DNA of 22,700 bases from a virus. Numbering within the stretch: position 1 is the first letter of the stretch; every line of letters starts with the position of its first letter. The notes under the pieces were generated by a model. That model worked only from the letters and a program-made list of their open reading frames with translations, did not search any database and was not told the origin of the DNA. Below, piece after piece: positions 9,385 to 21,600 of the stretch. The stretch lies in IMG/VR virus record IMGVR_UViG_3300018083_001080, positions 1-22,700 of that record; one strand, 5' to 3'. The translations under genes were made by a program, and so were the position numbers.

Positions 9385-9591
9385 ATGTTTCTCACACCAG
9401 AGATTGCCCACGATCTGCGACACGGCGCGAGCTTCGATGTTGAGGGCGAGCGCATAGGCGTCCGCCGCGTCAAAAGAGTTTGGTTCAATCCGTCATCCGG
9501 CCACTATGTCGCGGACGTTGGTTCCTGTTTTATGTGGACTGACGAACCGCACAAGCCTTGGCGAGTCGTGCCGTGCAACCCTAATCAGTGA
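9385..9591 (+). CDS. Small beta-rich hypothetical protein (68 aa)
   Basis: ATG 9385 has AGAGGAT upstream. The product contains FDVEGERIGVRRVKRVWFN and YVADVGSCFMWTDEPHKPW, which look like successive beta strands. No cysteine pair or membrane segment. Its stop overlaps a GTG in the polymerase frame (GTGA). Function unknown. Confidence 0.6.
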   Translation: MFLTPEIAHDLRHGASFDVEGERIGVRRVKRVWFNPSSGHYVADVGSCFMWTDEPHKPWRVVPCNPNQ

Positions 9592-9596
9592 TTAAC

Positions 9597-11585
9597 ATGA
9601 GTGATTTAGGAAATGATGCAGGCTTCTGGCCGGGCGCTCCGGCCAAGGTCAAATATCAACCTGATCCTAATGCTCCAAAAAAGGAGCCGAAAGTTCGCGA
9701 GCCGAAACAGAAAGTTGAATTGAATCCATACAAGCCCCGCAAGGCACCATCTTTTGAAGTGCTATCCGATGAAGAACTGGTTGAAGCTGTTGGTGATACT
9801 TTGGTGTTCGATGTCGAATGCTTCAAGAATTATTTTCTGATCGCCTTCAAGCATTTAAAAACCGGCAAGTTTCTTTTGTTCGAAATTCCGTTTGACGGCG
9901 ATAAGCTGGAATGGGTGCTGATAAATTTTACTTGCGTGGGATTCAATAGCTTGCGCTACGACATGCCGCTGGTCTGGATGGCCAGATCTAATCAGGATAT
10001 GATTAAACTTAAAAAGGTCAGCGATGAATTGATTCGCGGCGAATTTGTTACCAACATTACAAGGCGGCACAAGATTTCAATATTAAAAACCAAGCACATT
10101 GACCTGATAGAAGTATGTCCAATGTATGGAAGCTTGAAGCTTTATGGCGCAAGATTGCACGCCGAACGTATCTTGGAACTGCCGTGGTCTGATCTTCAAG
10201 AATTAGAAAAATGGCAAATATCTGTTACAAGACATTATTGCTTGGACGATCTGAATTTGACTGAATTGGTTTTCAACAATTTGACCGAACAACTACAATT
10301 GCGCGCCGAGCTTACCAAAGAGCAGCAAAAGGATTTGATGTCAAAGTCCGATGCTCAAATTGCCGAAGCGGTGATCGGCAACGAAATCAAAAAGATCAAA
10401 AACGCTTTTCCAAGTAGACCTAAAATCAAGCCCGGTAGTATTTTCAAATTTAAGACTCCAAAAAATCTAAAATTTCAAACCAAATACATGAAAGACATTC
10501 TCAAGACGGTTGAAGGAATTGAATTTGTTCTGGAGCCATCCGGCTATCTCGGCAGGCCAGAAATAATTGACACCGTAGAAATAACAATCGGCAATTCAAT
10601 TTACCGGATGGGAATGGGCGGGCTGCATAGCTCAGAAAGCCGCATGGCTTTAGTGGCGGATGCCAAGCATGATATCATCGATCGCGATGTGGCGTCCTAT
10701 TATCCGGCTATTGTGATGAATTGCGGGCTATATCCAAAAAATCTTGGACCAGAATTTTTACAGGTCTACAAAAGTTTAATTGAGCGCAGGCTTGCCGCTA
10801 AGAAGGCAGGGAATATTGCGGTCTCCGAGAACTTGAAAATTTCGATCAATGGTACTTTTGGCAAGACTGGAAACCCGTATTCTATTTTATACGCGCCCGA
10901 GGTTATTATTCAAATTTTGTTGGGCGGTCAGCTTTACCTGCTGATGCTAATTGAAGCTCTGGAGCTTGGCGGCGTGCCGGTAGCCAGTGCCAATACCGAT
11001 GGCATTTTGATGTATTGTCCTAAATCAAAAAAGAACAAAGCCGATCAAATTATCAGCCAGTGGGAAAAGACTACTAACTTTGTGACTGAGGAAACCCAAT
11101 ACAAGGCAGTTTATAGTCGTGACGTGAACGCCTATTTGGCAATAAAACTGGATGGCTCGGTCAAAGGCAAGAATATCTTTTATGATCCGTGGCGGGCCAA
11201 GAATGCCCGCGATCGATTCTGGCAATTTCAAAAGAATCCAAATTGTCAAATTGCGGTCGAAGCAGTCGAGCGGTTTGTGGTTGACGGCATCCCAATAGAA
11301 AAGACCGTGCGGGAATGTAAAGACATTTGTAAATTTGTAGCGGTAAAAAATGTGACCGGTGGGGCGCATAAAGCCGGAGACTATCTTGGCAAGACCGTAC
11401 GATGGTATATTGCTGACGGTGAGCAAGGCAGCATCAATTATGTAGCTAATAACAACCTGGTCCCGGATACTTTAGGGGCAAAACCGGTAATGGATTTACC
11501 AACCAGCTTGCCGGACGATATAGATTACGCCTATTATATTCGACGCGCCGAGGAAATGTTAGTCGATATGGGATATTCTAAATGA
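9597..11585 (+). CDS. Family B DNA polymerase with 3'-5' exonuclease (662 aa)
   Basis: Copies DNA and proofreads. Exonuclease motif I is FDVECF (D72, E74), motif II VGFNSLRYDMPL, motif III YCLDDLNLTE. Polymerase motif A is DRDVASYYPAIVM (D364 region), motif B KISINGTFGK (K414), motif C ANTDGI with catalytic D468; the first Asp of the usual DTD is Asn here. At 662 aa it is compact compared with cellular family B enzymes (780-900 aa). There is no obvious TPR2 protein-priming insertion, and the PrimPol gene downstream suggests RNA/DNA priming. ATG 9597 chosen; GTG 9588 is in frame. A clamp-like protein is encoded just upstream. The stop overlaps the next start. Confidence 0.88.
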   Translation: MSDLGNDAGFWPGAPAKVKYQPDPNAPKKEPKVREPKQKVELNPYKPRKAPSFEVLSDEELVEAVGDTLVFDVECFKNYFLIAFKHLKTGKFLLFEIPFDGDKLEWVLINFTCVGFNSLRYDMPLVWMARSNQDMIKLKKVSDELIRGEFVTNITRRHKISILKTKHIDLIEVCPMYGSLKLYGARLHAERILELPWSDLQELEKWQISVTRHYCLDDLNLTELVFNNLTEQLQLRAELTKEQQKDLMSKSDAQIAEAVIGNEIKKIKNAFPSRPKIKPGSIFKFKTPKNLKFQTKYMKDILKTVEGIEFVLEPSGYLGRPEIIDTVEITIGNSIYRMGMGGLHSSESRMALVADAKHDIIDRDVASYYPAIVMNCGLYPKNLGPEFLQVYKSLIERRLAAKKAGNIAVSENLKISINGTFGKTGNPYSILYAPEVIIQILLGGQLYLLMLIEALELGGVPVASANTDGILMYCPKSKKNKADQIISQWEKTTNFVTEETQYKAVYSRDVNAYLAIKLDGSVKGKNIFYDPWRAKNARDRFWQFQKNPNCQIAVEAVERFVVDGIPIEKTVRECKDICKFVAVKNVTGGAHKAGDYLGKTVRWYIADGEQGSINYVANNNLVPDTLGAKPVMDLPTSLPDDIDYAYYIRRAEEMLVDMGYSK

Positions 11586-12298
11586 ATCTTTTGATTAGTT
11601 TTAGCGGAGGCGAAACGTCAGCCTACATGACGCATTGGCTGCTGAATAATCAGCAGGCTAAGTATAAAAACATAGTTATAGTTTTTGCCAATACAGGTCA
11701 GGAAAATGAGGCGACACTTAAATTTGTTAAAAATTGTGACGAAGCTTTTGGGTTTAACACCATCTGGATTGAGGCTGTTCAATTTCAAAATGAACGAAAG
11801 GGAGCTTCTTTTAAAATAGTCAATTTTGAAACCGCTGATCGAAAAGGCAAGCCGTTTGAAGCTTCGATTAAAAAGTACGGAATTCCAAATCAAAAAAACA
11901 AAGAATGCACTCGAAACTTAAAGCGCTATCCAATTGAAGCCTATGCTCGAAGTTTGGGATGGAAAAAAACCGATTATGATTTAGCAATAGGCATTCGTTC
12001 TGATGAAATTGATCGAATGACTAGTGACGCAACAAGAAACATCATATATCCGTTAATTAAAGATCATCCCATGACCAAGCCTCAAATCAATTCCTGGTGG
12101 GCCAAGCAGCCGTTTCGACTTGATCTCAAAGGTTATCAAGGTAATTGTAAATGGTGTTGGAAAAAATCCATTCGAAAGCACCTTACTATTATAAGTGAGA
12201 ATCCTAAAGCGTATGACTTTCCTCGTAAAATGGAAAAATTATATGGTACCATAGGTCCAGAATCTTGCGAGGTATTTGCTGATGAAGATGAAAAATAA
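11582..12298 (+). CDS. PAPS-reductase-like / adenine nucleotide alpha hydrolase protein (238 aa)
   Basis: SFSGGETSAYM (residues 6-16) is the PP-loop ATP-pyrophosphatase motif, and FANTGQENEATLKFV (35-49) is the following strand-helix typical of PAPS reductase-like proteins. KECTRNLKRYPIEAY (C109) and a second pair CKWC (C189, C192) resemble the cysteines of DndC-like and tRNA-thiolating relatives, perhaps a metal site. Phage members are widespread and poorly understood; proposals include DNA sulfur modification or nucleotide chemistry. No dnd partner genes are seen here. Codon use is more AT-rich than its neighbours, suggesting recent acquisition together with the polymerase. Overlaps both neighbours. 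Confidence 0.75.
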   Translation: MNLLISFSGGETSAYMTHWLLNNQQAKYKNIVIVFANTGQENEATLKFVKNCDEAFGFNTIWIEAVQFQNERKGASFKIVNFETADRKGKPFEASIKKYGIPNQKNKECTRNLKRYPIEAYARSLGWKKTDYDLAIGIRSDEIDRMTSDATRNIIYPLIKDHPMTKPQINSWWAKQPFRLDLKGYQGNCKWCWKKSIRKHLTIISENPKAYDFPRKMEKLYGTIGPESCEVFADEDEK

Positions 12299-12677
12299 AC
12301 AAAACGAGGAAACCGTGCAAACTCATTGCGCCAAGCTGCTGGAAGCTTACGCGCGTGAGGATGTTTGCTGGTTTGCGGTACCGAATGGCGGGCTGCGTCC
12401 TAAGCGCACCGCGTTCAAGCTGAAACAGCAAGGCGTAAAGCGCGGCGTTTCGGATTTGTTTTTTATAATCAACGGTAAGTCTATTGGTTTGGAAATTAAA
12501 CCCGCCACAGGCGGCGTGCAATCAGACAAACAAAGCGACTGGCAGGAGCGCTTGGAACGCGCCGGTGGTTTTTACTATTTGGCCCGAGGGTTGAGCGAAG
12601 CGGTTGTCATCATGAACCGCATCGGAGCCTTCAGAATGCCAATCAAGCTTACGAGTGAGACTGTGACGCAAGCGTAG
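12282..12677 (+). CDS. VRR-NUC domain nuclease (131 aa)
   Basis: VPNGGLRPKRTAFKLKQQGV, then VSDLFF (D58) and GLEIKPATGG (E71, K73), followed by QSDKQ, form the PD-(D/E)XK core of the VRR-NUC family. These are often stand-alone Holliday-junction or flap-type nucleases in phages. Length is typical of the minimal phage form. ATG 12282 follows GAGGT by 8 bases; ATG 12288 is also possible. It overlaps the PAPS-like gene by 17 bases and precedes the Sak4-like gene, fitting a recombination module. Confidence 0.85.
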   Translation: MKMKNKQNEETVQTHCAKLLEAYAREDVCWFAVPNGGLRPKRTAFKLKQQGVKRGVSDLFFIINGKSIGLEIKPATGGVQSDKQSDWQERLERAGGFYYLARGLSEAVVIMNRIGAFRMPIKLTSETVTQA

Positions 12678-12752
12678 CTTGCTGATGGTTCTCCCGACCC
12701 CGGTCTAGTCTCTCCGCACATTTCACGGGGCGGTCCATCAAGGAGACGTAAA

Positions 12753-13562
12753 ATGGCACTATCGTTGAAGGACCTGCATAAGGTCCGCGCCACCCTGCCT
12801 CCGCGCGTTTTGATCTATGGTCCGCCGGGAATTGGTAAAACCACTTTGGCTTCCGAATTTCCAGACCCGGTCTTTCTCCAAATTGAAGACGGCACTCCAA
12901 GCGATCTTGAATTGCAATCGTTCGGCAGGCTCACGGCATTTGATGATGTCATGGAGGCGGTCGCCGCGCTCTATACTGAAGAGCACAAGAATAAAACTGT
13001 AGTCTTAGATAGCTTGGACAAGCTGGAGCCGTTGGTTTGGGCAAAGGCTTGTCAGGACAATAATTGGGAAAGCATTGAAACTCCCGGCTATGGTCGCGGC
13101 TATATCGCGGTTGATACTTATTGGCGGGATTTGCTGGAAGGCATGAACGCGCTGCGCCGCGATAAGAACATGGCGGTTGTGCTGATTGCACATTCGTCTA
13201 TCGAAACCGTAAACGACCCAATGACCGCCTCGTACAGCCGCTATGATATTCGGTTGCACAAACGCGCTATTGGCATCGTTCAAGATGAAATGGATTGCGT
13301 GCTTTTCATCAATCAAGATGTCTCGTTGCTTCAAAACGATCCAAAAGCCAAGGCTGGTCCCGGCGCAAGAGTACGCGCTGCCGGTGGCGGCAACCGGTTT
13401 GTCCATGCCACGCCACGTCCTGCTTATGTGGCTAAAAATCGGTTCGGAATGCCGGACAAAATTCAATACAACAAGGGCAAAGGTTTTGAAGCTTTAAAGC
13501 CGTTCTTTCCAGCACCGGCGGTCGCTGTGAATGGAAAAGTGAAAACCTCGAAAGCCGCCTGA
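12753..13562 (+). CDS. Sak4-like RecA-fold ATPase (AAA_24) (269 aa)
   Basis: IYGPPGIGKTTLASEFP (K29 of Walker A) and TVVLDSLDKL (Walker B region) mark a RecA-fold ATPase. The layout IEDGTPSDL, LVWAKACQDNN, LIAHSSIETVNDP is characteristic of phage AAA_24 proteins such as Sak4, which act with a single-strand-binding partner in recombination. The following DUF669 gene supports this. ATG 12753 has AAGGAG 8 bases upstream. The 75-base gap before it shows no clear promoter or terminator. Confidence 0.85.
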   Translation: MALSLKDLHKVRATLPPRVLIYGPPGIGKTTLASEFPDPVFLQIEDGTPSDLELQSFGRLTAFDDVMEAVAALYTEEHKNKTVVLDSLDKLEPLVWAKACQDNNWESIETPGYGRGYIAVDTYWRDLLEGMNALRRDKNMAVVLIAHSSIETVNDPMTASYSRYDIRLHKRAIGIVQDEMDCVLFINQDVSLLQNDPKAKAGPGARVRAAGGGNRFVHATPRPAYVAKNRFGMPDKIQYNKGKGFEALKPFFPAPAVAVNGKVKTSKAA

Positions 13563-13602
13563 TCTTTCTAAAAATCCAACCCCCTCAAAAGGAACTAGAA
13601 TT

Positions 13603-14172
13603 ATGGCTGAACTACCTGAAGTCTTTTACCCGGAAGATATCCCGGAAGACGATCGCAACTTTGACCCGATTCCACCTGGTACCTATACCATGCAGGTCAT
13701 CGAGTCCAAGATCGACGATACCAGAACCGGCACCGGGCAAATGCTGGTGCTGACGCTGGAAATTATCGACGGCGAATATACCAACCGCCGGATTTGGGAC
13801 CGGTTGAACATCGTCAACCAGAACCCGGATGCACAACGCATTGCGCAACAAGCGTTGCGGGCGCTGTGCATGGAGCTGGAAATTTCCGAATTGAAGGATT
13901 CGGAAGAACTACACTTTAAGCCATTCGACGCCAAGGTCCGGATTGAACAGGATAAGTCCGGCCAATATGGCCCGCAGAACCGGGTCCGCTATGGCTCCGG
14001 ACAGGCCAATCCGCCCGCAGAGAAAGCCGCTCCCGAGCCGAAAGGCAGGACGGCGGCCCCGCCTCCCAGAAACAGCGCCAGAGCCCCGCAGAAAGCCGCT
14101 CCTGCGGGCCGTTCGGCCAAGCCTTGGGCGGCGGGTAAAGCCGGAAAGGGCAGCCGGGACGCCCCGTTCTGA
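13603..14172 (+). CDS. DUF669 single-strand-binding-type protein (189 aa)
   Basis: FDPIPPGTYTMQVIESKIDD and LTLEIIDGEYTNRRIWDRLN are diagnostic of DUF669, a phage family that usually sits beside Sak4 and is thought to serve as the single-stranded DNA binding protein. The core domain ends near residue 125. The rest is a Pro/Ala/Lys/Arg-rich flexible tail ending KGSRDAPF; a short tail tip ending in Pro-Phe is also the partner-docking feature of bacterial SSB. ATG 13603 has AAGGAA upstream. Confidence 0.85.
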   Translation: MAELPEVFYPEDIPEDDRNFDPIPPGTYTMQVIESKIDDTRTGTGQMLVLTLEIIDGEYTNRRIWDRLNIVNQNPDAQRIAQQALRALCMELEISELKDSEELHFKPFDAKVRIEQDKSGQYGPQNRVRYGSGQANPPAEKAAPEPKGRTAAPPPRNSARAPQKAAPAGRSAKPWAAGKAGKGSRDAPF

Positions 14173-14327
14173 AGAAGTAGGGAGTCGTTGGGCAACCCGT
14201 AGAAGCCCGGCGGCTCTTTGCATCGATCTGGATACTCTAGTCAACCCTTCATTGGTGGGGCTTCGGTCGCAATGCCAGACGATACTCGGGCCAATGCACG
14301 TGCGGTCCATAACTGTAAGATTGAAAA

Positions 14328-14486
14328 ATGAAAAACAGACAGGATTATGTTGCGGTTCTGGTGCGTGAAATAAAGCGGTTTGATACTGAAGCCGAAGCCA
14401 AAAGCTTCCGTAATCGATTTGGCAAGAAAGCCGAAGAAATTGTGATTATAAAAGTAAAGGAACCAATTCGTGGTCGCGCTTCCTGA
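14328..14486 (+). CDS. Small hypothetical protein (52 aa)
   Basis: The frame starts MKNRQDYVAVLVREIKRF and ends KVKEPIRGRAS. The pattern of strand, helix and strand with EAEAKSFRNRFGKK resembles the short phage proteins that carry a ferredoxin-like fold, but no name can be given. The ribosome site is weak (TAAGA). Its end overlaps the GTG start of the next gene by 17 bases. The 155 bases before it (14173-14327) hold no convincing gene. Confidence 0.55.
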   Translation: MKNRQDYVAVLVREIKRFDTEAEAKSFRNRFGKKAEEIVIIKVKEPIRGRAS

Positions 14487-15423
14487 ACCAGTTATGCACA
14501 CCGTGCTTGCTATTTGGCAAGCCTATGAAAGCAAAGCTTCTGGTAGCGGTGACAATACCGGGGTGCCGATGTCGGTAGCCGCCAGCGATTGTTCCCGCTC
14601 AATCTGGTATGCCTTGCGGTGGGCGGCACCGCCTGAAGTCATCGATGGTCAGAAACAACGGCGGTTTGCTACCGGCCATCGCGAGGAAGACCGCTTATTG
14701 GCTGATCTTGAAGCTGCTGGCATTGAAGTAATTAAAACCGATCCTGCTACCGGCGAGCAATTTCGAGCTGCGCTTGCGGATGGCTGGTTGCGTGGCAAAT
14801 TGGACGGCAAGGTTATCGGTGTGCCGGAAGCGCCTAAAACCACCCATGTGGTTGAAATCAAAAGTCATAACGATAAGTCGTTCAAGGATCTTCAAAAGAA
14901 GAAATTAAAAGACGGCAAGCCGGAGCATTACGTACAATGCCAGCTCTATATGAAGGCGCTCAAGCTTACTCGCTGCCTGTATTTGGCGGTCAATAAAAAC
15001 GACGATTCTCTTTATGCCGAGCGCATTTCATACGAGCCGAATTTCGCCGCACAGATTGAAGAAAAAATCAAAAAGGTAGTCAAAGCCAATAGCGCACCAC
15101 CCAAGCTTTTCAATAATCCGGATGATCGTGCGGCGTTCGTTTGCCGGTGGTGTCGCGCCAGACCGCAATGTCACGACAACCAATTTGCAAGGTTCAATTG
15201 CAGAACCTGCATCGAGGCTGAATTCATGCCGAATGCCGAGGTGCGGTGCGCGTTGTGGAATAGAATACTCAGCTACGATGACCAGCAAAAGGGCTGCGCC
15301 AAGCACTTGTTTCTGCCAAGCCTGGTGCCGGGCGAGCAAATAGACTCCGACGAAAAGAAACGTACGGTAACTTATGAGCTGCGCAACGGGCAAAAGTGGG
15401 TGGATGGGAAGCTTGCTAAATAA
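14470..15423 (+). CDS. Cas4-like PD-(D/E)XK exonuclease with probable Fe-S cluster (317 aa)
   Basis: RGKLDGK (D112) and VVEIKSH (E129, K131) followed by EHYVQCQLYMKAL form the RecB/Cas4-type nuclease core, with the QxxxY helix. C41 near the N-terminus and C225-x2-C228-x5-C234 near the C-terminus reproduce the one-plus-three cysteine set that holds a [4Fe-4S] cluster in Cas4 and AddB. C244 and C247 add a further pair. Probable 5'-3' or ssDNA exonuclease working with Sak4 and DUF669 in recombination. GTG 14470 is preceded by AAGGAA at 7 bases; ATG 14494 is the alternative. Confidence 0.8.
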   Translation: MVALPEPVMHTVLAIWQAYESKASGSGDNTGVPMSVAASDCSRSIWYALRWAAPPEVIDGQKQRRFATGHREEDRLLADLEAAGIEVIKTDPATGEQFRAALADGWLRGKLDGKVIGVPEAPKTTHVVEIKSHNDKSFKDLQKKKLKDGKPEHYVQCQLYMKALKLTRCLYLAVNKNDDSLYAERISYEPNFAAQIEEKIKKVVKANSAPPKLFNNPDDRAAFVCRWCRARPQCHDNQFARFNCRTCIEAEFMPNAEVRCALWNRILSYDDQQKGCAKHLFLPSLVPGEQIDSDEKKRTVTYELRNGQKWVDGKLAK

Positions 15424-15451
15424 AAAAATAAATAATAAGATTTGATTGCTG

Positions 15452-15468
15452 TTCGGCATCCAGCCGAA
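15452..15468 (+). other. Small hairpin in the leader of the next gene
   Basis: TTCGGC-ATCCA-GCCGAA is a perfect 6-bp stem in the 81-base gap after the Cas4-like gene. It is preceded by an AT-rich run (15421-15441) and not followed by T-rich sequence, so it is not a standard terminator. It may shape the 5' leader of the gene at 15505. Confidence 0.35.
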
Positions 15469-15504
15469 TCTACCGCCCGCGTCTGGGCAAACAGGAGACT
15501 GAAA

Positions 15505-16326
15505 ATGGCTAAAGGCAAGACCACGGAAATTATTGAGGTGTCGGAAATTCAGCAGGAGGAAGCGATCTTTCACATCCTTGGTGCCACACCAATGATCATG
15601 AATCGTTTTAGCTTCAAGGCCCGGCAGGAATTGCTGATCCCGAAAGGCAAACAGAGCCGCGCTACGCTGGAAAGCAAGATGAAGCACGATCCATTGGCGG
15701 AATTTCGCGGTGCCTTGTATTTGAACCGCGACAAGAACAGCTACACACGCTTCCACATTCCGAACTCTGCTTTCCACCGTGCCATTGCGGCGGCTGGCAG
15801 CGATATGCCGGGAGCGGCAAAGGCTCAATTGAATCGGCTGGCCAGCATCGTGGATTTATCCATCGATCTGTATGGCGTGCCCAATCTTTTCATGTCGATG
15901 GTTCGCAACAGCGACATGAACCGCACGCCGGACGTTCGCACCCGTCCGATCTTCCCGGAATGGGCTTGCACCGTGACGGTTCGCTATACGCTGCCGAACA
16001 TCACCCGGCGTACCATTACCAACCTATTTACCGGTGCTGGTTCGATCATCGGCATTGGCGACTGGCGTCCGCAGAAAGGCGGCACCCATGGTCGGTTCTT
16101 GATTGTGTCCGATAAAGACCCGCGCTTTCTGAAGATCGTCAAGGAGCAGGGGCGCAAGGCGCAACAGGCTGCCTATGACCAGCCGGTCATGTTCGATGAA
16201 GATACCGAAGAATTGATGGCGTGGTTTGAACAGGAAGTGATGCGCCGCGAGCGCACTTCGGAATCATCCAAGCCGGTCAAGAACGGCAAGGCCAAGAAGT
16301 CCAACGTGGTGGAACTGAACGCTTAA
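15505..16326 (+). CDS. Conserved-looking phage protein of unknown function (273 aa)
   Basis: I chose ATG 15505, with AGGAG 8 bases upstream. The product starts MAKGKTTEIIEVSEIQQEE and has a central IVDLSIDLYGVPNLFMSMV, then FTGAGSIIGIGDWRPQKGG (about residues 178-196) and a basic Ser/Lys tail. The 'GIGDWRPxxGGxxGRF' block looks like a conserved core. I do not recognise the family. Position between the Cas4-like nuclease and the helicase suggests replication or recombination. Confidence 0.65.
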   Translation: MAKGKTTEIIEVSEIQQEEAIFHILGATPMIMNRFSFKARQELLIPKGKQSRATLESKMKHDPLAEFRGALYLNRDKNSYTRFHIPNSAFHRAIAAAGSDMPGAAKAQLNRLASIVDLSIDLYGVPNLFMSMVRNSDMNRTPDVRTRPIFPEWACTVTVRYTLPNITRRTITNLFTGAGSIIGIGDWRPQKGGTHGRFLIVSDKDPRFLKIVKEQGRKAQQAAYDQPVMFDEDTEELMAWFEQEVMRRERTSESSKPVKNGKAKKSNVVELNA

Positions 16327-16336
16327 AGGAGACTGA

Positions 16337-16825
16337 ATGCAGATCAAGACCAAGAAAGCGGTGGTTGTCGCGGAGTTGGAGAAGCTCCGCGACAAATCTG
16401 GCAGGCTTACGGCCGAACAGGTCTATCAGGCTGCCAAAAACAAACGTCATCCCTTGCACAAGGAGTTTATATGGGATGACAAAAAAGCCGCCTACCTCCA
16501 GCGGATCGAACGTGCCAACGAATTGATCCGCTATGCAACCCAAATTGTGATCACGCGCAACATCAAGATTGATGTGCCTTGCTACGTGCGTGATCCAAGC
16601 AAGGCAGGCAATGAGGCTGGTATGATTTCTTTAACGTCTGCTGATCTTGATAAGCAGCAATCGGAAAAGATCATGCTGGCGGAATTGGATCGTTGTGAGT
16701 ATGCGATCGTAAGGGCAAGGGGTGTAGTCGGTTTTCTGGATAAGTCACATCCCGGATTATCGATCAAGCTTGAGGAAATGTTGGCTGCAATCATTTACGC
16801 TAAGTCAATGTTGCAGGCGGCATAA
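16337..16825 (+). CDS. Phage protein of unknown function (162 aa)
   Basis: ATG 16337 has AAAGGAGA upstream, 10 bases after the previous stop. LTAEQVYQAAKNKRHPLHKE then FIWDDKKAAYLQRIERANEL and later YVRDPSKAGNE form a layout I have seen in other proteobacterial phage proteins next to recombination genes. The second half is helical and may be a coiled coil. No enzymatic motif is visible. The pentamer array begins one or two bases after its stop codon. Confidence 0.65.
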   Translation: MQIKTKKAVVVAELEKLRDKSGRLTAEQVYQAAKNKRHPLHKEFIWDDKKAAYLQRIERANELIRYATQIVITRNIKIDVPCYVRDPSKAGNEAGMISLTSADLDKQQSEKIMLAELDRCEYAIVRARGVVGFLDKSHPGLSIKLEEMLAAIIYAKSMLQAA

Positions 16826-17621
16826 ACGGCAGGAATGGAAAGGATTGGTGAGGTAACTCATGTTCTGGTGAGGCGCGGCATGACGTGGACTGGCAGGAGC
16901 GGATGGAAAGGCACGCTTGGGTTCGGGGTGGTCAGGTCTAGATTGGTAAGGCATTCGCAGGAGTGGCGGGGAATGGCACGGCGCTGCACGGAGAGGTTTG
17001 GAGAGGCATCGCAGGAGCAGCAAGGAAAGGTCAGGACTGGCGCGGTGAGTCCATGCAAGGCGCGGCGTGGTGCGGTATGGCATCGCAGGTGAGGCCGGGG
17101 TTGTCGCGGTCTGGCGTGGAAGGGCAAGGCAGGAATGGCACGATTCGGTCAGGCGGGGACCGGCATGGCACGATGTGGCATCGCAGGTGAGGCGCGAAAT
17201 AGGTCTGTCGCGGTTTGTCGGGAAAAGGTAAGGCATCGCAGGTGAGGTGAGGAGTAGTTGGGTTTGGAGAGGTCGAGTGCGGCTTTAGCAGGCGTGGACA
17301 GGTTCAGCGGGGCAATAAGTGTCCCGGCATGGTGTGGACAGGTACGGCAGGAGCGGAGCAGCATGGTAAGGCATGGTGGAGCACGGTTCGGTCTGAATAG
17401 GCATCGCAGGAACGGCTAGGCGAAGCGGGGCGGGGACTGGTTGGGTGCGTCATCGCAGGTGCGGTGGGAATTGGATCGGTGTGGTGCGGTCGCGTGTGGT
17501 GAGGCGTGGCGGCGCAGGCGAGGCGGCGTGGGGAGTGGTTGGGCGCGGCAAACCAAGCACCGGCACGGCAGGAAAGGTTCGTCAGGGACCGGCTTGGTCT
17601 GGCGCGGATGGGTATGGCAGG
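16826..17621 (+). repeat. Non-coding NNNGG pentamer array with CAGG/CATCGCAGG punctuation
   Basis: From just after the stop at 16825 to about 17621 the plus strand divides into pentamers ending in GG (for example TGAGG, CGCGG, TCAGG, ACTGG, TATGG). In 17016-17080 10 of 13 pentamers end GG; in 17090-17178 14 of 17 do. The register is broken mainly by tetramers CAGG, often as CATCGCAGG: exact copies at 17007, 17081, 17179, 17234, 17402 and 17451, and a one-base variant at 16952. Between markers lengths are exactly 5n or 5n+4 (45, 65, 89, 159, 40), with one 46-base exception. Open frames on both strands here are by-products of few stop codons. No standard element matches. It ends about 25 bases before the helicase ATG. 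Confidence 0.85.
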
Positions 17622-17645
17622 CAAACACATTTAGGTACAAACAAA

Positions 17646-19250
17646 ATGAAACTACGACCCTATCAACGCCAAGCTCTGAACGCACTTTACAGCTTCTGGC
17701 GCAAGCAAGGCGGCAACCCGTTGATCGTGTTGCCGACCGGCTCCGGCAAGAGCTTGGTCATGGCCGCATTGTGCCAAGAGCTGTTGCGGGATTATCCTAA
17801 TTTGCGCATCGGCATTGTCACTCATGTGCGCGAGCTCATTAAACAGAATTTCGATGAGCTTATGAGCCTTTGGCCATTGGCTCCGGCTGGAATCTTTTCG
17901 GCTGGCATTGGCCGCCGTGATACCCGCGATCAAATTCTGTTTTGCGGCATTCAAAGCGTTTGGAATAAAACCGATCTGGTTGGTCTGTTTGATATTATAT
18001 TGATCGATGAGGTTCATCTGGTTTCTAAAAATTCCGCCACCATGTACGGAGCGTTCATTGCAGCGGTGCGAGCAGCGGTGCCCGATGTGCGCATTGTTGG
18101 CCTTACTGCTTCGCCGTGGCGATTGGATAGCGGGCGGCTGGATCGCGGCAAGGGTCGAATCTTCGACAAGGTGGTTTTCGATGCCAATGTGCGCAATCTG
18201 ATCGACCAAGGTTATTTGTGCAATTTGATGTCCAAGGCTACTGCTACCGCATTGGACGTAAGCAATGTCGGCCAGCGCGGCGGCGAATTTATTGCGGGCG
18301 AATTGGAAATTGCAGTCGATCAGGATTGGATTACCCAAGCGGCGGTGCGGGAAATTATTCAATATAGCCGTGGCCGCAAGTCTTGGCTGGTTTTCTGCTC
18401 GGGCGTAGCACATGCCGCCCATGTGCGCGATGAAATGGTAGCGTCCGGCATTAAGTGTGAGACGGTCACCGGCGATACTCCAAAAGAATTACGCGATGCC
18501 CATATCCGCAATTTCAAGCTTGGCAAGCTGCAATGCCTTACCAGCGTTGGCGTGCTTGGCACCGGTTTTAATCATCCGGGCGTTGATCTCATTGCCTTGC
18601 TGCGTCCTACCCAAAGTGCCGGGCTGTTCTTGCAGCAAGTAGGACGTGGGCTGCGCAATGCACCAAACAAGAAGAACTGCTTAATTTTGGATTTTGCCGG
18701 AAATACTTCAAGGCATGGTCCAATCGACATGATCACCATTAGCCATTCATCCGAGCGACGTGGCGATGGCGAAGCGTTGGTGAAAGCCTGCCCGCAATGC
18801 CGGTCTATATTGCCGCTGGCCTGCAAGACCTGTCCGGATTGCGGGTATGTCTTTTCCGATGACAGCTTGCCAGCGCATGAAGCCACTGCCGATGCAAAGA
18901 CTCCGATTCTTAGCCAAGGCGCACCGGTATGGATAAATGTAAATGATGTGCAATATTTTCAGCATTTGAAGCCGGGCTCGGTGCCCACCTTGCGAATTGA
19001 ATATTTGTGCGGGCTGTTGGTCCATAAACAATGGGCTTGCTTTGACCATAGCGGGCTAGCGCGCAGCAAGGCCGAGCATTGGTGGCGCAAGGCTGGCGGC
19101 GATAAGATTCCTAGATCGACTGCCGAAGCTTTGGCGCGTGCCCATGAGCTTAACAAACCGGCGCAAATACAAATTAGGCCGGATGGCAAATACTTTGTGG
19201 TAGTAGGCTGGAAATTTAATGCGGCGGAAGCCGCGAAAATGATTGCTTAA
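17646..19250 (+). CDS. SF2 DEAD/DEAH-type helicase with zinc-binding tail (534 aa)
   Basis: ATP-driven nucleic acid unwinding. The N-terminal LRPYQRQALNAL is the Q-motif-like start of SF2 restriction-type helicases. PTGSGKS (K35) is motif I, DEVH (D121) motif II, GLTASPWR (about 151) motif III, and QVGRGLR (about 332-338) motif VI. C382PQC and C393KTCPDCGYVF form a zinc ribbon after the motor. The last 90 residues match no domain I know. ATG 17646 is chosen because translation upstream would run through the pentamer array; a weak TAGGT lies 9 bases before it. It likely acts at replication forks or in recombination together with the PrimPol protein. Confidence 0.88.
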   Translation: MKLRPYQRQALNALYSFWRKQGGNPLIVLPTGSGKSLVMAALCQELLRDYPNLRIGIVTHVRELIKQNFDELMSLWPLAPAGIFSAGIGRRDTRDQILFCGIQSVWNKTDLVGLFDIILIDEVHLVSKNSATMYGAFIAAVRAAVPDVRIVGLTASPWRLDSGRLDRGKGRIFDKVVFDANVRNLIDQGYLCNLMSKATATALDVSNVGQRGGEFIAGELEIAVDQDWITQAAVREIIQYSRGRKSWLVFCSGVAHAAHVRDEMVASGIKCETVTGDTPKELRDAHIRNFKLGKLQCLTSVGVLGTGFNHPGVDLIALLRPTQSAGLFLQQVGRGLRNAPNKKNCLILDFAGNTSRHGPIDMITISHSSERRGDGEALVKACPQCRSILPLACKTCPDCGYVFSDDSLPAHEATADAKTPILSQGAPVWINVNDVQYFQHLKPGSVPTLRIEYLCGLLVHKQWACFDHSGLARSKAEHWWRKAGGDKIPRSTAEALARAHELNKPAQIQIRPDGKYFVVVGWKFNAAEAAKMIA

Positions 19251-19270
19251 AGCTCCCGGCTTTCTGTAAT

Positions 19271-19334
19271 GGCGTGCGCGCCTGCGCCGGGGACAGCGAC
19301 TTCGCGAGTCGTTTCCCCTTCCCCTCCGTTGGGG
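19271..19334 (+). other. Cluster of three GC-rich hairpins between helicase and primase genes
   Basis: Within the 124-base gap there are GGCG-TGCG-CGCC (19271-19282), a long stem made of GGGGA (19289-19293) and CGACT (19297-19301) pairing with AGTCG (19307-19311) and TCCCC (19314-19318), and CCCC-N6-GGGG (19321-19334). No T-run follows, so read-through is expected. Possible roles are RNA processing or stability, or a DNA structure used in replication. Confidence 0.5.
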
Positions 19335-19374
19335 ATTACCCGCGTGCAAGGCTGGTTTAATTCGGAGGGACTTA

Positions 19375-21600
19375 ATGGCTACCAAGAAACCTTGGCTGAA
19401 CAAAAATACCAATCTTCTCAACTTTGCAGTTCAAATAGCCGCAACCGGCCAAGCGGTTTTCCCATGCCATCCCGGAACCAAAGCGCCGCTTACGCCGCAT
19501 GGCTTCAAGGACGCGTCTTTGAATGCCGACCAGATAAGCGAATGGTGGGGCAGATATCCGAACGCTTGGATCGCATCGCCTACCGGCAATGAAAGCCATC
19601 GGCTGGTCATCGATTTGGATCGCAAGCCGGGCCAAGCTGACGGTGTGATCGAATGGCCCAAGTTTTTATCCGATAATGGTATTGACGAAATTGAAACTAA
19701 AACCATTCAAACGCCTTCAGGTGGCAGGCATCTGGTCTTTAATTGCGATGAGGATTTAGGCTCGCTGCCGCTGAACAAGCTATGGCCCGGCATCGAGGTC
19801 AAGTCCAATGGTGGTTATGTAATTGTACCACCATCTCCCGGTTATAGCGTTTTGAGCGATGTCGAGCCGATCGAGGCTCCGCAATGGCTGGTCAATCGGA
19901 TTGGCGAATTGAAGCGTAGCAATGGCCACTTTCATGGCGACGATGACGGCACCGCTTCGATCGAAGAGCTTAAGCTCGCCATGGATGTGATCCCAAACGA
20001 CGATCTAGTTTGGGATGATTGGAATAGGGTCGCAATGGCATTGTGGCGGGCTTCGACCGGCTCGGCTGAAGCGTTCAAGTTGTTCGATGAATGGTCCAAG
20101 AAATCATCAAAATACAACACCCGCATCTGCCGCGATCGCTGGCGAGTGATTGGCAGGTCGCGCCCCACCGAGCTTGGCGCAGGCACGCTGTTCTATTTGG
20201 CCCAAGAGGCCGACCCGTTCTGGCGCGAAGCAGGCCGCAATGCCGAGCACGAAGAGCAGGCCGCCAAGCTGGTCGAAGGCTTGCTGCGTGGCCGAAACAA
20301 AGGCGAAAAGTCGTCGCATGAATTTCAGGAATTCCCCGACCGGCTGTTGCAAGTCCCAGGTGTGGTAAGCGAAATAGCCGACTGGGTATTGTCCTGCTCG
20401 CGCAGGCCGCAGCCATTGCTGGCCTTGGCAGTGGGGCTGTGTGTGGTCGGCACCTGCATTGGCCGCAAGGTTGCGGGGCCAACTCATTCCGGCACCCATT
20501 TGTATATGACGTTTGTTTCGCCTACTGGCTCCGGCAAGCAATTGGCAGTCGATGCCATAGCCGAAATTTTCAGTGCGTGCGGGCCACCGATCAAGGCGTG
20601 CTGCGGTCCCCCGGAATTTAGCTCTATTTCTGCCTTTACCCATTTTCTGGAAAAGCAACCGCTGGCGATTTGCGTCTTTGACGAAATCGGGTCGTTCCTG
20701 AAACGTATTTTGAATCGGCGTGCCAGCGGATGGGAGGCCGGGATTTCGGCTGAGCTGCGCAGGGCATGGGGTTCGTCGTTTTCCGAAATGCGAACCACTG
20801 AATGGGCGCAAATATCGTCCAAGATCATTTCGTCGCCTGCCCTGACGGTGCTCGGGGCTTCGACCCAAAAGGAATTCTACGACTCGCTGCGCGGCGAGGA
20901 TGTGGGCAATGGGCTGCTGAACCGGTTTCTAATTCTGGAAACCCAGCTCACGCCGCAGCCGCAAAACCCGGATCATTCCATCCGACAAGTGCCCAAGCCG
21001 ATCGTGGCCAAGCTTCGCAGGCTTTATGACCGTGGCTCGGCGCTGTATGTGGAAAAGGTGGCCCCGTCCCAGATCATTGATGAAACGGACGAGGCCTATG
21101 GGTTGCGGCTGGCCTTTACCCAAGAAATTGAAGCGCGCAGCCGCAAGCATCCGGATCAGGCGGATTTTCTGGTACGGGCGGTAGAAAATGCCTTGCGGCT
21201 GGCAACAATTGTGGCGGCTGGAGACAGCGCCAATGCGATTTCTGGCCCTACCATGGCTTGGGCCATAGATTTCAGCCGGTGGGCTTCGGACCGGCTTATT
21301 CAGGCCGCCCGTGCCCATATAGCCGATAGCGAAACTCAGGAAATGGCCCAACAAATTCGCCGGATCATCCTTCGGCATGGCAAGCCGGGCGATCCATGGG
21401 TCAAAATGGCCACGCTATGGCGCGGATTAAAATTCAAATACAAGCGCCGGGACGTTGAAGAAGTCATCAGAATGCTGACTGAATCTCGGGAAGTGGTCGT
21501 GAAAAAATCGCAGCCAAAAGGCGGTGGCACCCCGACTCATTGGTTCAAGATTCAGGATCAAACAGCCATTGATATCGACGCGGCTGAAGGCTCCGTCTGA
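19375..21600 (+). CDS. Bifunctional PrimPol (AEP primase-polymerase) fused to helicase-like ATPase (741 aa)
   Basis: Residues 1-190 are an archaeo-eukaryotic primase domain: FPCHPGTKAPLTPHGF start, catalytic VIDLDRK (D80, D82), SGGRHLVF (H119) and GIEVKSNGGYVIVPPS. Residues about 205-285 look like PriCT-2 (WDDWNRVAMALW). The C-terminal part has Walker A SPTGSGKQ (K388) and Walker B CVFDEIG (D436, E437), resembling DUF3987-type phage helicases, with a winged-helix-like tail. It probably primes and unwinds at the phage origin. ATG 19375 is preceded by GGAGGG. The following 260 bases look like the origin it would serve. Confidence 0.88.
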   Translation: MATKKPWLNKNTNLLNFAVQIAATGQAVFPCHPGTKAPLTPHGFKDASLNADQISEWWGRYPNAWIASPTGNESHRLVIDLDRKPGQADGVIEWPKFLSDNGIDEIETKTIQTPSGGRHLVFNCDEDLGSLPLNKLWPGIEVKSNGGYVIVPPSPGYSVLSDVEPIEAPQWLVNRIGELKRSNGHFHGDDDGTASIEELKLAMDVIPNDDLVWDDWNRVAMALWRASTGSAEAFKLFDEWSKKSSKYNTRICRDRWRVIGRSRPTELGAGTLFYLAQEADPFWREAGRNAEHEEQAAKLVEGLLRGRNKGEKSSHEFQEFPDRLLQVPGVVSEIADWVLSCSRRPQPLLALAVGLCVVGTCIGRKVAGPTHSGTHLYMTFVSPTGSGKQLAVDAIAEIFSACGPPIKACCGPPEFSSISAFTHFLEKQPLAICVFDEIGSFLKRILNRRASGWEAGISAELRRAWGSSFSEMRTTEWAQISSKIISSPALTVLGASTQKEFYDSLRGEDVGNGLLNRFLILETQLTPQPQNPDHSIRQVPKPIVAKLRRLYDRGSALYVEKVAPSQIIDETDEAYGLRLAFTQEIEARSRKHPDQADFLVRAVENALRLATIVAAGDSANAISGPTMAWAIDFSRWASDRLIQAARAHIADSETQEMAQQIRRIILRHGKPGDPWVKMATLWRGLKFKYKRRDVEEVIRMLTESREVVVKKSQPKGGGTPTHWFKIQDQTAIDIDAAEGSV

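What the first reader, a model, noticed from the sequence alone, without database searches (positions are those of the whole stretch)
16826..17621. An 800-base non-coding array of NNNGG pentamers held in register
The sequence splits by eye into about 150 pentamers, most ending in GG, starting right after one gene's stop and ending just before the helicase. The other three positions vary freely, so this is not a simple tandem repeat: only the GG spacing is conserved. That implies selection on spacing, or an unusual copying process. GG every 5 bases also gives continuous G2N3 tracts able to form two-layer G-quadruplexes in the plus strand or its RNA, and places GG on alternating helix faces. I half-remember Trp/Gly/Arg-rich translated frames of this style in other phages, so the class may recur, but I know of no description of its role.
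Basis: partly seen in the sequence, partly recalled or inferred. Interest (0 to 1): 0.87.

Follow-up and report, generated by a model that had tools for sequence, protein, structure and literature searches.

The report
Phage guide-RNA array of VIPR type
The odd "GG every five bases" stretch is almost certainly a store of guide RNAs for VIPR, a CRISPR-like system described in 2026 that phages use to bind and silence the DNA of rival phages; this is a new example, with the guides strung together as short modules marked off by the four letters CAGG.

Summary
In detail: 81 GG pairs lie 5 bases apart in 16826-17621, against 28 +/- 5 in shuffles, and nowhere else in the window. It is a VIPR vrRNA array. 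VIPR is a phage RNA-guided DNA-binding system reported in a 2026 preprint (PMC13142463). The gene at 15505-16326 is a Vipr protein: its family profile hits the solved SUSP1 Vipr at E 1e-44, and its model matches Cas7/Csm3 subunits. Members sit beside arrays in 72 of 107 viral contigs that I pulled by DNA pattern alone, on the G-rich strand in 71 of 72 placed cases. The next gene, 16337-16825 (phrog_15946), is a likely accessory gene. It goes with one array layout: modules of about 8-14 pentamers, each closed by a 4-base CAGG unit. In mycobacteriophages that are otherwise identical there, whole modules are gained or lost (59 bp; 113 bp). The variable dinucleotides match codon positions 1-2 (p about 5e-5), as expected for guides aimed at genes under the published 1-base-skip rule. 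Natural targets were not found. New member of a known kind; whether the CAGG layout equals the preprint's "staggered arrays" is open.

The parts
15505..16326 (+). vipr gene: RAMP (Cas7-like) protein, 273 aa, phrog_4652
   Evidence: Profile of 68 relatives hits PDB 36pp_D 'SUSP1 Vipr protein' E 1.2e-44; AF2 model pLDDT 85.6; all 50 top PDB matches are CRISPR RAMP proteins, best Z 11.3, residues 15-204; G-loop motif GIGDWRPQKGGTHGRF
16337..16825 (+). candidate vipr-accessory (vap) gene, 162 aa, phrog_15946, no known fold found
   Evidence: Present in 26 array or vipr loci, tracking CAGG-punctuated arrays; model pLDDT 91.4, no convincing PDB match
16826..17621 (+). vrRNA guide array: about 150 pentamers NNNGG in CAGG-closed modules
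   Evidence: GG autocorrelation z 11.4 at lag 5; segmentation
16834..16897 (+). module 1: 12 units + CAGG; NN = AT AA TT GA AA AT CT GA GC AT GT CT
16962..17015 (+). module: 9 units + CATCG + CAGG; NN = GT GG AT AC GC AC GA TT GA
17016..17089 (+). module 3: 13 units + CATCG + CAGG; NN = GC AA AA CA CT GC GA CA AA GC GT GC AT
17090..17133 (+). module 4: 8 units + CAGG
17134..17187 (+). module 5: 9 units + CATCG + CAGG
17352..17410 (+). module 8: 10 units + CATCG + CAGG; NN = GC GC AT AA AT GG AC TC CT TA
17411..17459 (+). module 9: 8 units + CATCG + CAGG
17460..17518 (+). module 10: 10 units + CGGCG + CAGG
17519..17572 (+). module 11: 10 units + CAGG
17573..17621 (+). module 12: 9 units + CAGG
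17646..19250 (+). DNA helicase gene (phrog_16) directly after the array; probably an ordinary replication gene, not part of the system
   Evidence: relatives in only 7 of the array loci

Best explanation
16826-17621 is the guide-RNA (vrRNA) array of a phage VIPR system, with its Vipr protein at 15505-16326 and a probable accessory protein at 16337-16825. Shown here: the vipr family, the array, their linkage, the module structure and the codon-like guide letters. Inferred from the published SUSP1 and P. fulva systems: the plus strand is transcribed; Vipr subunits polymerise on the RNA, each gripping one GG(Y) and displaying the two variable letters; each module of about 8-14 units, ended by the register-breaking CAGG unit, is one guide; and the complex binds double-stranded DNA through NN pairs separated by one skipped base, mostly in coding sequence with the skip at the wobble position, to repress genes of competing phages or prophages.
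For: Autocorrelation. Contigs pulled only by the DNA pattern GG(N3GG)8 carry the window's vipr family in 72 of 107 loci with a detected array, on the G-rich strand in 71 of 72 placed cases, mostly abutting it; a single-sequence search with other window genes finds relatives in 1-14 loci against 43 for vipr. Profile hit to SUSP1 Vipr, E 1.2e-44. Predicted structure is RAMP-like, Csm3. Converse test: 4 of 4 records chosen by Vipr protein alone have arrays beside vipr. Preprint text: Vipr + vrRNAs of 9-16 YNNGG repeats, 1-nt skip rule, phage-encoded, 'staggered arrays' known. Variable dinucleotides of the window fit codon positions 1-2 of its own genes (log-likelihood +8.9; background draws -4.7 +/- 3.1, p about 5e-5; swapped order -19.3). 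CAGG spacing 93/108 of the form 5n+4, mostly 44-64, in phrog_15946 loci. Exact gain or loss of CAGG-bounded modules between mycobacteriophages.
Against: No natural target was found: five 9-unit patterns in IMG/VR and one 10-unit pattern in GTDB genomes gave hits at about chance number. Several units here lack the second G, and A is allowed after GG (26 of 81), unlike the published GGY. No conserved 3' tail like SUSP1's is visible. Expression is not shown.
Confidence: 0.95

Rival explanations
1. A decaying VIPR array: the system is real by descent, but many units have lost GG and the array no longer makes working guides.
For: About a third of units lack a clean GG, and the base after GG is relaxed to A/T/C; several modules have irregular length (module 6, 51 nt).
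Against: The vipr and vap reading frames are intact. The NN letters keep a codon-position signature. Related arrays that share phrog_15946 or the CAGG layout also allow A after GG (L009, L083, L100, L070). The array still spans 800 bases with regular CAGG marks.
Confidence: 0.15
2. A structural DNA or RNA element: G-rich non-template strand favouring R-loops or two-layer G-quadruplexes, for example a replication origin before the helicase.
For: Strong GC skew (+0.42) and position next to helicase and primase genes.
Against: G-quadruplexes or R-loops do not need an exact 5-base register, slips of exactly -1 at CAGG, a codon-like NN composition or linkage to a RAMP protein. In relatives the array follows vipr into other neighbourhoods: beside excisionase, antirepressor or tail genes.
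Confidence: 0.02
3. A Trp/Gly/Arg-rich protein-coding region.
For: Open frames up to 143 aa on either strand; some phage records annotate small ORFs here.
Against: Frames are produced by the repeat itself. Identical-flank relatives differ by 59 and 113 bp in the array, breaking any frame. The period is 5, with -1 slips.
Confidence: 0.01

Closest known systems
VIPR systems (Viral Interference Programmable Repeat; PMC13142463; Escherichia phage SUSP1, type II)
   Same: Phage-encoded Vipr RAMP gene, neighbouring small accessory gene, adjacent arrays of (Y)NNGG pentamers on the same strand, codon-like variable dinucleotides.
   Different: SUSP1 has four separate vrRNAs of about 100 nt with structured 3' tails and a different accessory protein (no profile match between them). 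Here there is one unbroken array of about 13-15 modules closed by CAGG, GGH rather than GGY, and a phrog_15946 accessory protein.
VIPR loci of cluster F mycobacteriophages (Quico, Brocalys, James), Gordonia phages UmaThurman and Ecliptus, cyanophage Cy-LDV1
   Same: Vipr + phrog_15946 + CAGG-punctuated array: the same layout as the window.
   Different: Vipr only about 26-32% identical; nearly always C or T after GG; in the mycobacteriophages the array lies upstream of vipr; boundary word CATGGCAGG there where the window has CATCGCAGG.
CRISPR-Cas class 1 (Csm3/Cas7 backbone and crRNA array)
   Same: RAMP fold; RNA-guided logic; repeat-like marks between variable guides; loss or gain of whole units.
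   Different: No identical repeats, no Cas1/Cas2 seen in the window, guide information interleaved with the repeat rather than in contiguous spacers.

Membership tests
VIPR | vipr gene encoding a single-domain RAMP protein related to SUSP1 Vipr | tested here: met
   Profile E 1.2e-44 to 36pp_D; phrog_4652 in all 68 members
VIPR | RAMP fold with RRM core and glycine-rich loop | tested here: met
   AF2 model matches Csm3/Cas7 chains, Z up to 11.3; motif GIGDWRPQKGGTHGRF. The thumb domain was not examined separately
VIPR | vrRNA with tandem YNNGG repeats (9-16 per guide), hypervariable NN | tested here: met
   NNNGG units in modules of about 8-14 between CAGG marks; deviation: A as well as C/T after GG
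VIPR | array adjacent to vipr, on the same strand | tested here: met
   Array begins 499 bases after vipr, with only the accessory gene between; 71 of 72 same strand across loci
VIPR | vipr-accessory (vap) gene | tested here: inconclusive
   phrog_15946 gene between vipr and array tracks CAGG arrays; whether it is one of the preprint's vap1-6 could not be read (supplement not held)
VIPR | invariable structured 3' tail on each vrRNA (shown for type II) | tested here: inconclusive
   No such tail seen; the recurring CATCG-CAGG may mark the guide end, or this may be the 'staggered' array type
VIPR | targets matched with a 1-nt skip | tested here: inconclusive
   Codon position 1-2 signature fits; no convincing target found
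VIPR | vrRNA expression and binding to Vipr | not testable with these tools
   Needs small-RNA sequencing and pull-down
CRISPR-Cas | near-identical direct repeats separating contiguous spacers | tested here: not met
   Tandem Repeats Finder finds no such array; only one short 14-base period in the region
CRISPR-Cas | cas genes (Cas1/Cas2, effector complex) | tested here: not met
   No Cas1 or Cas2 among the window proteins scanned with PHROGs or Pfam; only a Cas4-like exonuclease; no PADLOC hit for vipr or vap

The most novel reading that the evidence does not exclude
The CAGG-punctuated, phrog_15946-linked arrays are a distinct VIPR architecture in which the register-breaking CAGG unit bounds interchangeable guide modules that phages gain and lose as whole units, a phage-borne, evolvable memory of rivals without Cas1. 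The exact 59-bp and 113-bp module differences in culturable M. smegmatis phages would allow acquisition to be studied directly.
Probability: 0.35. Interest if true: 0.8.

Novelty: new member of a known kind. Interest (0 to 1): 0.57.

Why it matters
VIPR is proposed as the ancestor of CRISPR's RNA-guided machinery and as a weapon between phages. This window adds an uncultivated-virus example. The comparison around it shows how common the arrays are in IMG/VR, ties one accessory family to one array layout, and shows that guide modules come and go as units in well-studied mycobacteriophages, which makes the question of how VIPR gains new guides testable.

Tried and rejected
blastn of the array against phage records: no match, because the variable letters defeat seeds. 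tblastn of an array frame: no match. Protein-coding reading: rejected (non-triplet indels in near-identical relatives). Rfam on the region: only a sub-threshold IMES-2 hit, E 0.03, over the gene junction; no hammerhead ribozyme in 13 array loci at gathering scores, so this window is not shown to be of the ribozyme-interspersed type. Target search: nine-unit NNx patterns for five window modules gave 2, 1, 2, 3 and 0 IMG/VR hits, about what chance predicts by rough estimate; extension beyond the searched units failed. The best is L126, 10 consecutive units in frame in an antirepressor-like gene; L136 also matched two flanking units, but these belong to a separator. The GTDB hit L138 is out of frame. 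All guides against 1.1 Mb of fetched DNA: skip-1 gives 170 near matches (16/18 or better) against 123, 141 and 100 for skips 0, 2, 3, which codon composition alone could cause. Mycobacteriophage guides against Che8 and other loci: no target; the 3-skip matches listed were unmasked copies of the arrays themselves; a scan of IMG/VR with one shared mycobacteriophage guide gave two hits that were not followed up. PDB fold search with the phrog_15946 model: only coiled-coil-level matches; families not listed are not excluded. An early profile for the accessory family swelled with array translations and was replaced by a clean one. Supplementary figures S16-S22 of the preprint could not be read.

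Full report
CHECK OF THE OBSERVATION. The region holds 151 GG dinucleotides, 81 of which have another GG exactly 5 bases on; dinucleotide-preserving shuffles give 28.4 +/- 4.6 (z 11.4), and lags 10 to 25 in steps of 5 are also high. No other part of the window shows this. The stretch begins right after the stop of the gene at 16337-16825 and ends just before the helicase ATG at 17646. A segmentation shows that the register slips by -1 at 4-base units, mostly CAGG and often in the word CATCGCAGG; between such marks lie mostly 8-14 five-base units. The base after GG is T, A or C (29, 26, 23) and rarely G (3).

THE CLASS RECURS. A lag-5 detector confirmed arrays in 107 of the loci, up to 1545 bases long. 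Blasting one long array (L091) against phage records found mycobacteriophages of the cluster F type (Cheoctovirus) and a Gordonia phage.

A PROTEIN GOES WITH IT. A single-sequence search of the window's proteins against these loci found the product of 15442/15505-16326 in 43 of them; other window genes were found in 1-14. With a profile and six-frame search, 72 of 107 array loci hold this family. Of 72 members with a detected array nearby, 71 lie on the same strand as the G-rich strand, mostly within tens of bases. All aligned members belong to phrog_4652, of unknown function, with no credible Pfam family. The family profile hits one solved structure strongly: 36pp chain D, 'SUSP1 Vipr protein', E 1.2e-44. 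An AlphaFold2 model (pLDDT 85.6) matches CRISPR RAMP subunits in all 50 top rows, best Csm3, Z 11.3, 151 residues at 3.6 A.

IDENTIFICATION. The preprint PMC13142463 (2026) describes VIPR systems: a phage-encoded RAMP protein, Vipr, and vrRNAs made of 9-16 YNNGG repeats. The variable NN letters pair with double-stranded DNA with one skipped base between pairs, the skip mostly at the codon wobble position. Natural targets are competing phages and satellites, and binding represses transcription. The window has the two defining parts. Converse test made here: four phage records chosen only by similarity to the window's Vipr (Ecliptus, LittleE, Cy-LDV1, LESphi2) all have pentamer arrays next to vipr.

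WHAT IS PARTICULAR HERE. The gene between vipr and array, 16337-16825, belongs to phrog_15946. A clean profile finds it in 26 loci, nearly all with CAGG-punctuated arrays. In 18 of these loci counted first, CAGG marks have 17.4 per kb against 5.7 in other array loci, and 93 of 108 CAGG-to-CAGG distances are 5n+4, mostly 44-64 bases. That the distances are 5n+4 follows partly from the register; the regular length and the recurring word are the informative parts. Among the four converse-test records, phrog_15946 is present in exactly the two with CAGG arrays. It shares no detectable similarity with the SUSP1 neighbour gene that I take for vap1, and its model (pLDDT 91) has no convincing PDB match.

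MODULES ARE UNITS OF GAIN AND LOSS. ByChance and James are identical over the aligned array and flanks except for 59 bp in James: 11 units plus CAGG, flanked by a 23-base direct repeat that includes CATGGCAGG. Donkeykong differs from Pippy and Brocalys by 113 bp, two modules (59 + 54), and one further base. Neither length is a multiple of three, which excludes a conserved reading frame. Direction (gain or loss) is not known; recombination between the short repeats is the simplest mechanism (inference).

WHAT THE VARIABLE LETTERS SAY. In the window the 81 cleanly framed NN pairs have first letter G35 A21 C14 T11 and second letter T27 A25 C20 G9. Scored against codon positions 1-2 of the window's own genes they give +8.9 log units over background (background draws -4.7 +/- 3.1, p about 5e-5), while swapped letters give -19.3 and reverse complements -4.8. 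Column shuffles score the same as the observed pairs, so the signal is in the composition of the two positions. This is what sense-strand guides against coding DNA with the skip at the wobble base would give. Modules read as first-two-letter codons look protein-like, for example module 3: A K K Q L A E Q K A V A M (one choice per box).

TARGETS. Not found. Five modules were scanned as nine-unit NNx patterns in IMG/VR and one as ten units in GTDB genomes; hits were at about chance number and did not extend convincingly. A site in an antirepressor-like gene (L126, 10 consecutive units, in frame) is the best lead, no more. A near-identical copy of the phage (L133, 99.99% over 8354 bp) comes from sample 3300021082, as does L070, which also carries vipr and an array.

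VERDICT. A real and striking feature, correctly seen, already explained in kind by a 2026 preprint. The window is a new member with an array layout that may or may not be the preprint's 'staggered arrays with overlapping vrRNAs'. The main text says that the ribozyme-interspersed and single-vrRNA types were confirmed by sequencing, and does not say so of the staggered ones.

Noticed in passing
L133 1-8354 = window 12623-20976: A contig from sample record 3300021082 is 99.99% identical (one mismatch), array included; the same sample also yields L070, a different VIPR phage.
   Followed up: partly
L142 2630-4174 (Pseudomonas phage LESphi2, P. aeruginosa LESB58): A VIPR locus in the LES prophage 2: three short tailed guide blocks upstream of vipr, followed by a small gene without phrog_15946 similarity.
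   Followed up: partly
L140 3459-4990 (Mycobacterium phage LittleE, Omegavirus): VIPR locus with separate guide blocks and no phrog_15946, between tail genes.
   Followed up: no
L146 about 1658-1712 (Donkeykong array): One module holds an internal exact duplication of five units (AC AC GA AA TC, TA, AC AC GA AA TC), suggesting slippage can build guides.
   Followed up: no
L104 1622-2422, L056 431-1143, L037 1313-2037: Two short arrays about 650-740 bases apart in each contig; in L104 both end in the same tail (CGGGGCTTTTTAAGCCTTGAGTAA), like discrete vrRNAs.
   Followed up: partly
L092 2742-3094: The only array on the strand opposite to its vipr gene.
   Followed up: no
L120 1-829: A strong array behind a truncated ORF with a RAMP-like start (IKGVKPLLMHSTR) that the family profile missed: a possible more distant Vipr.
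   Followed up: no
window 9588-16326: Compact replication and recombination block: DNA polymerase, PAPS reductase-like, Sak4, SSB-like, Cas4-type exonuclease, then vipr.
   Followed up: partly
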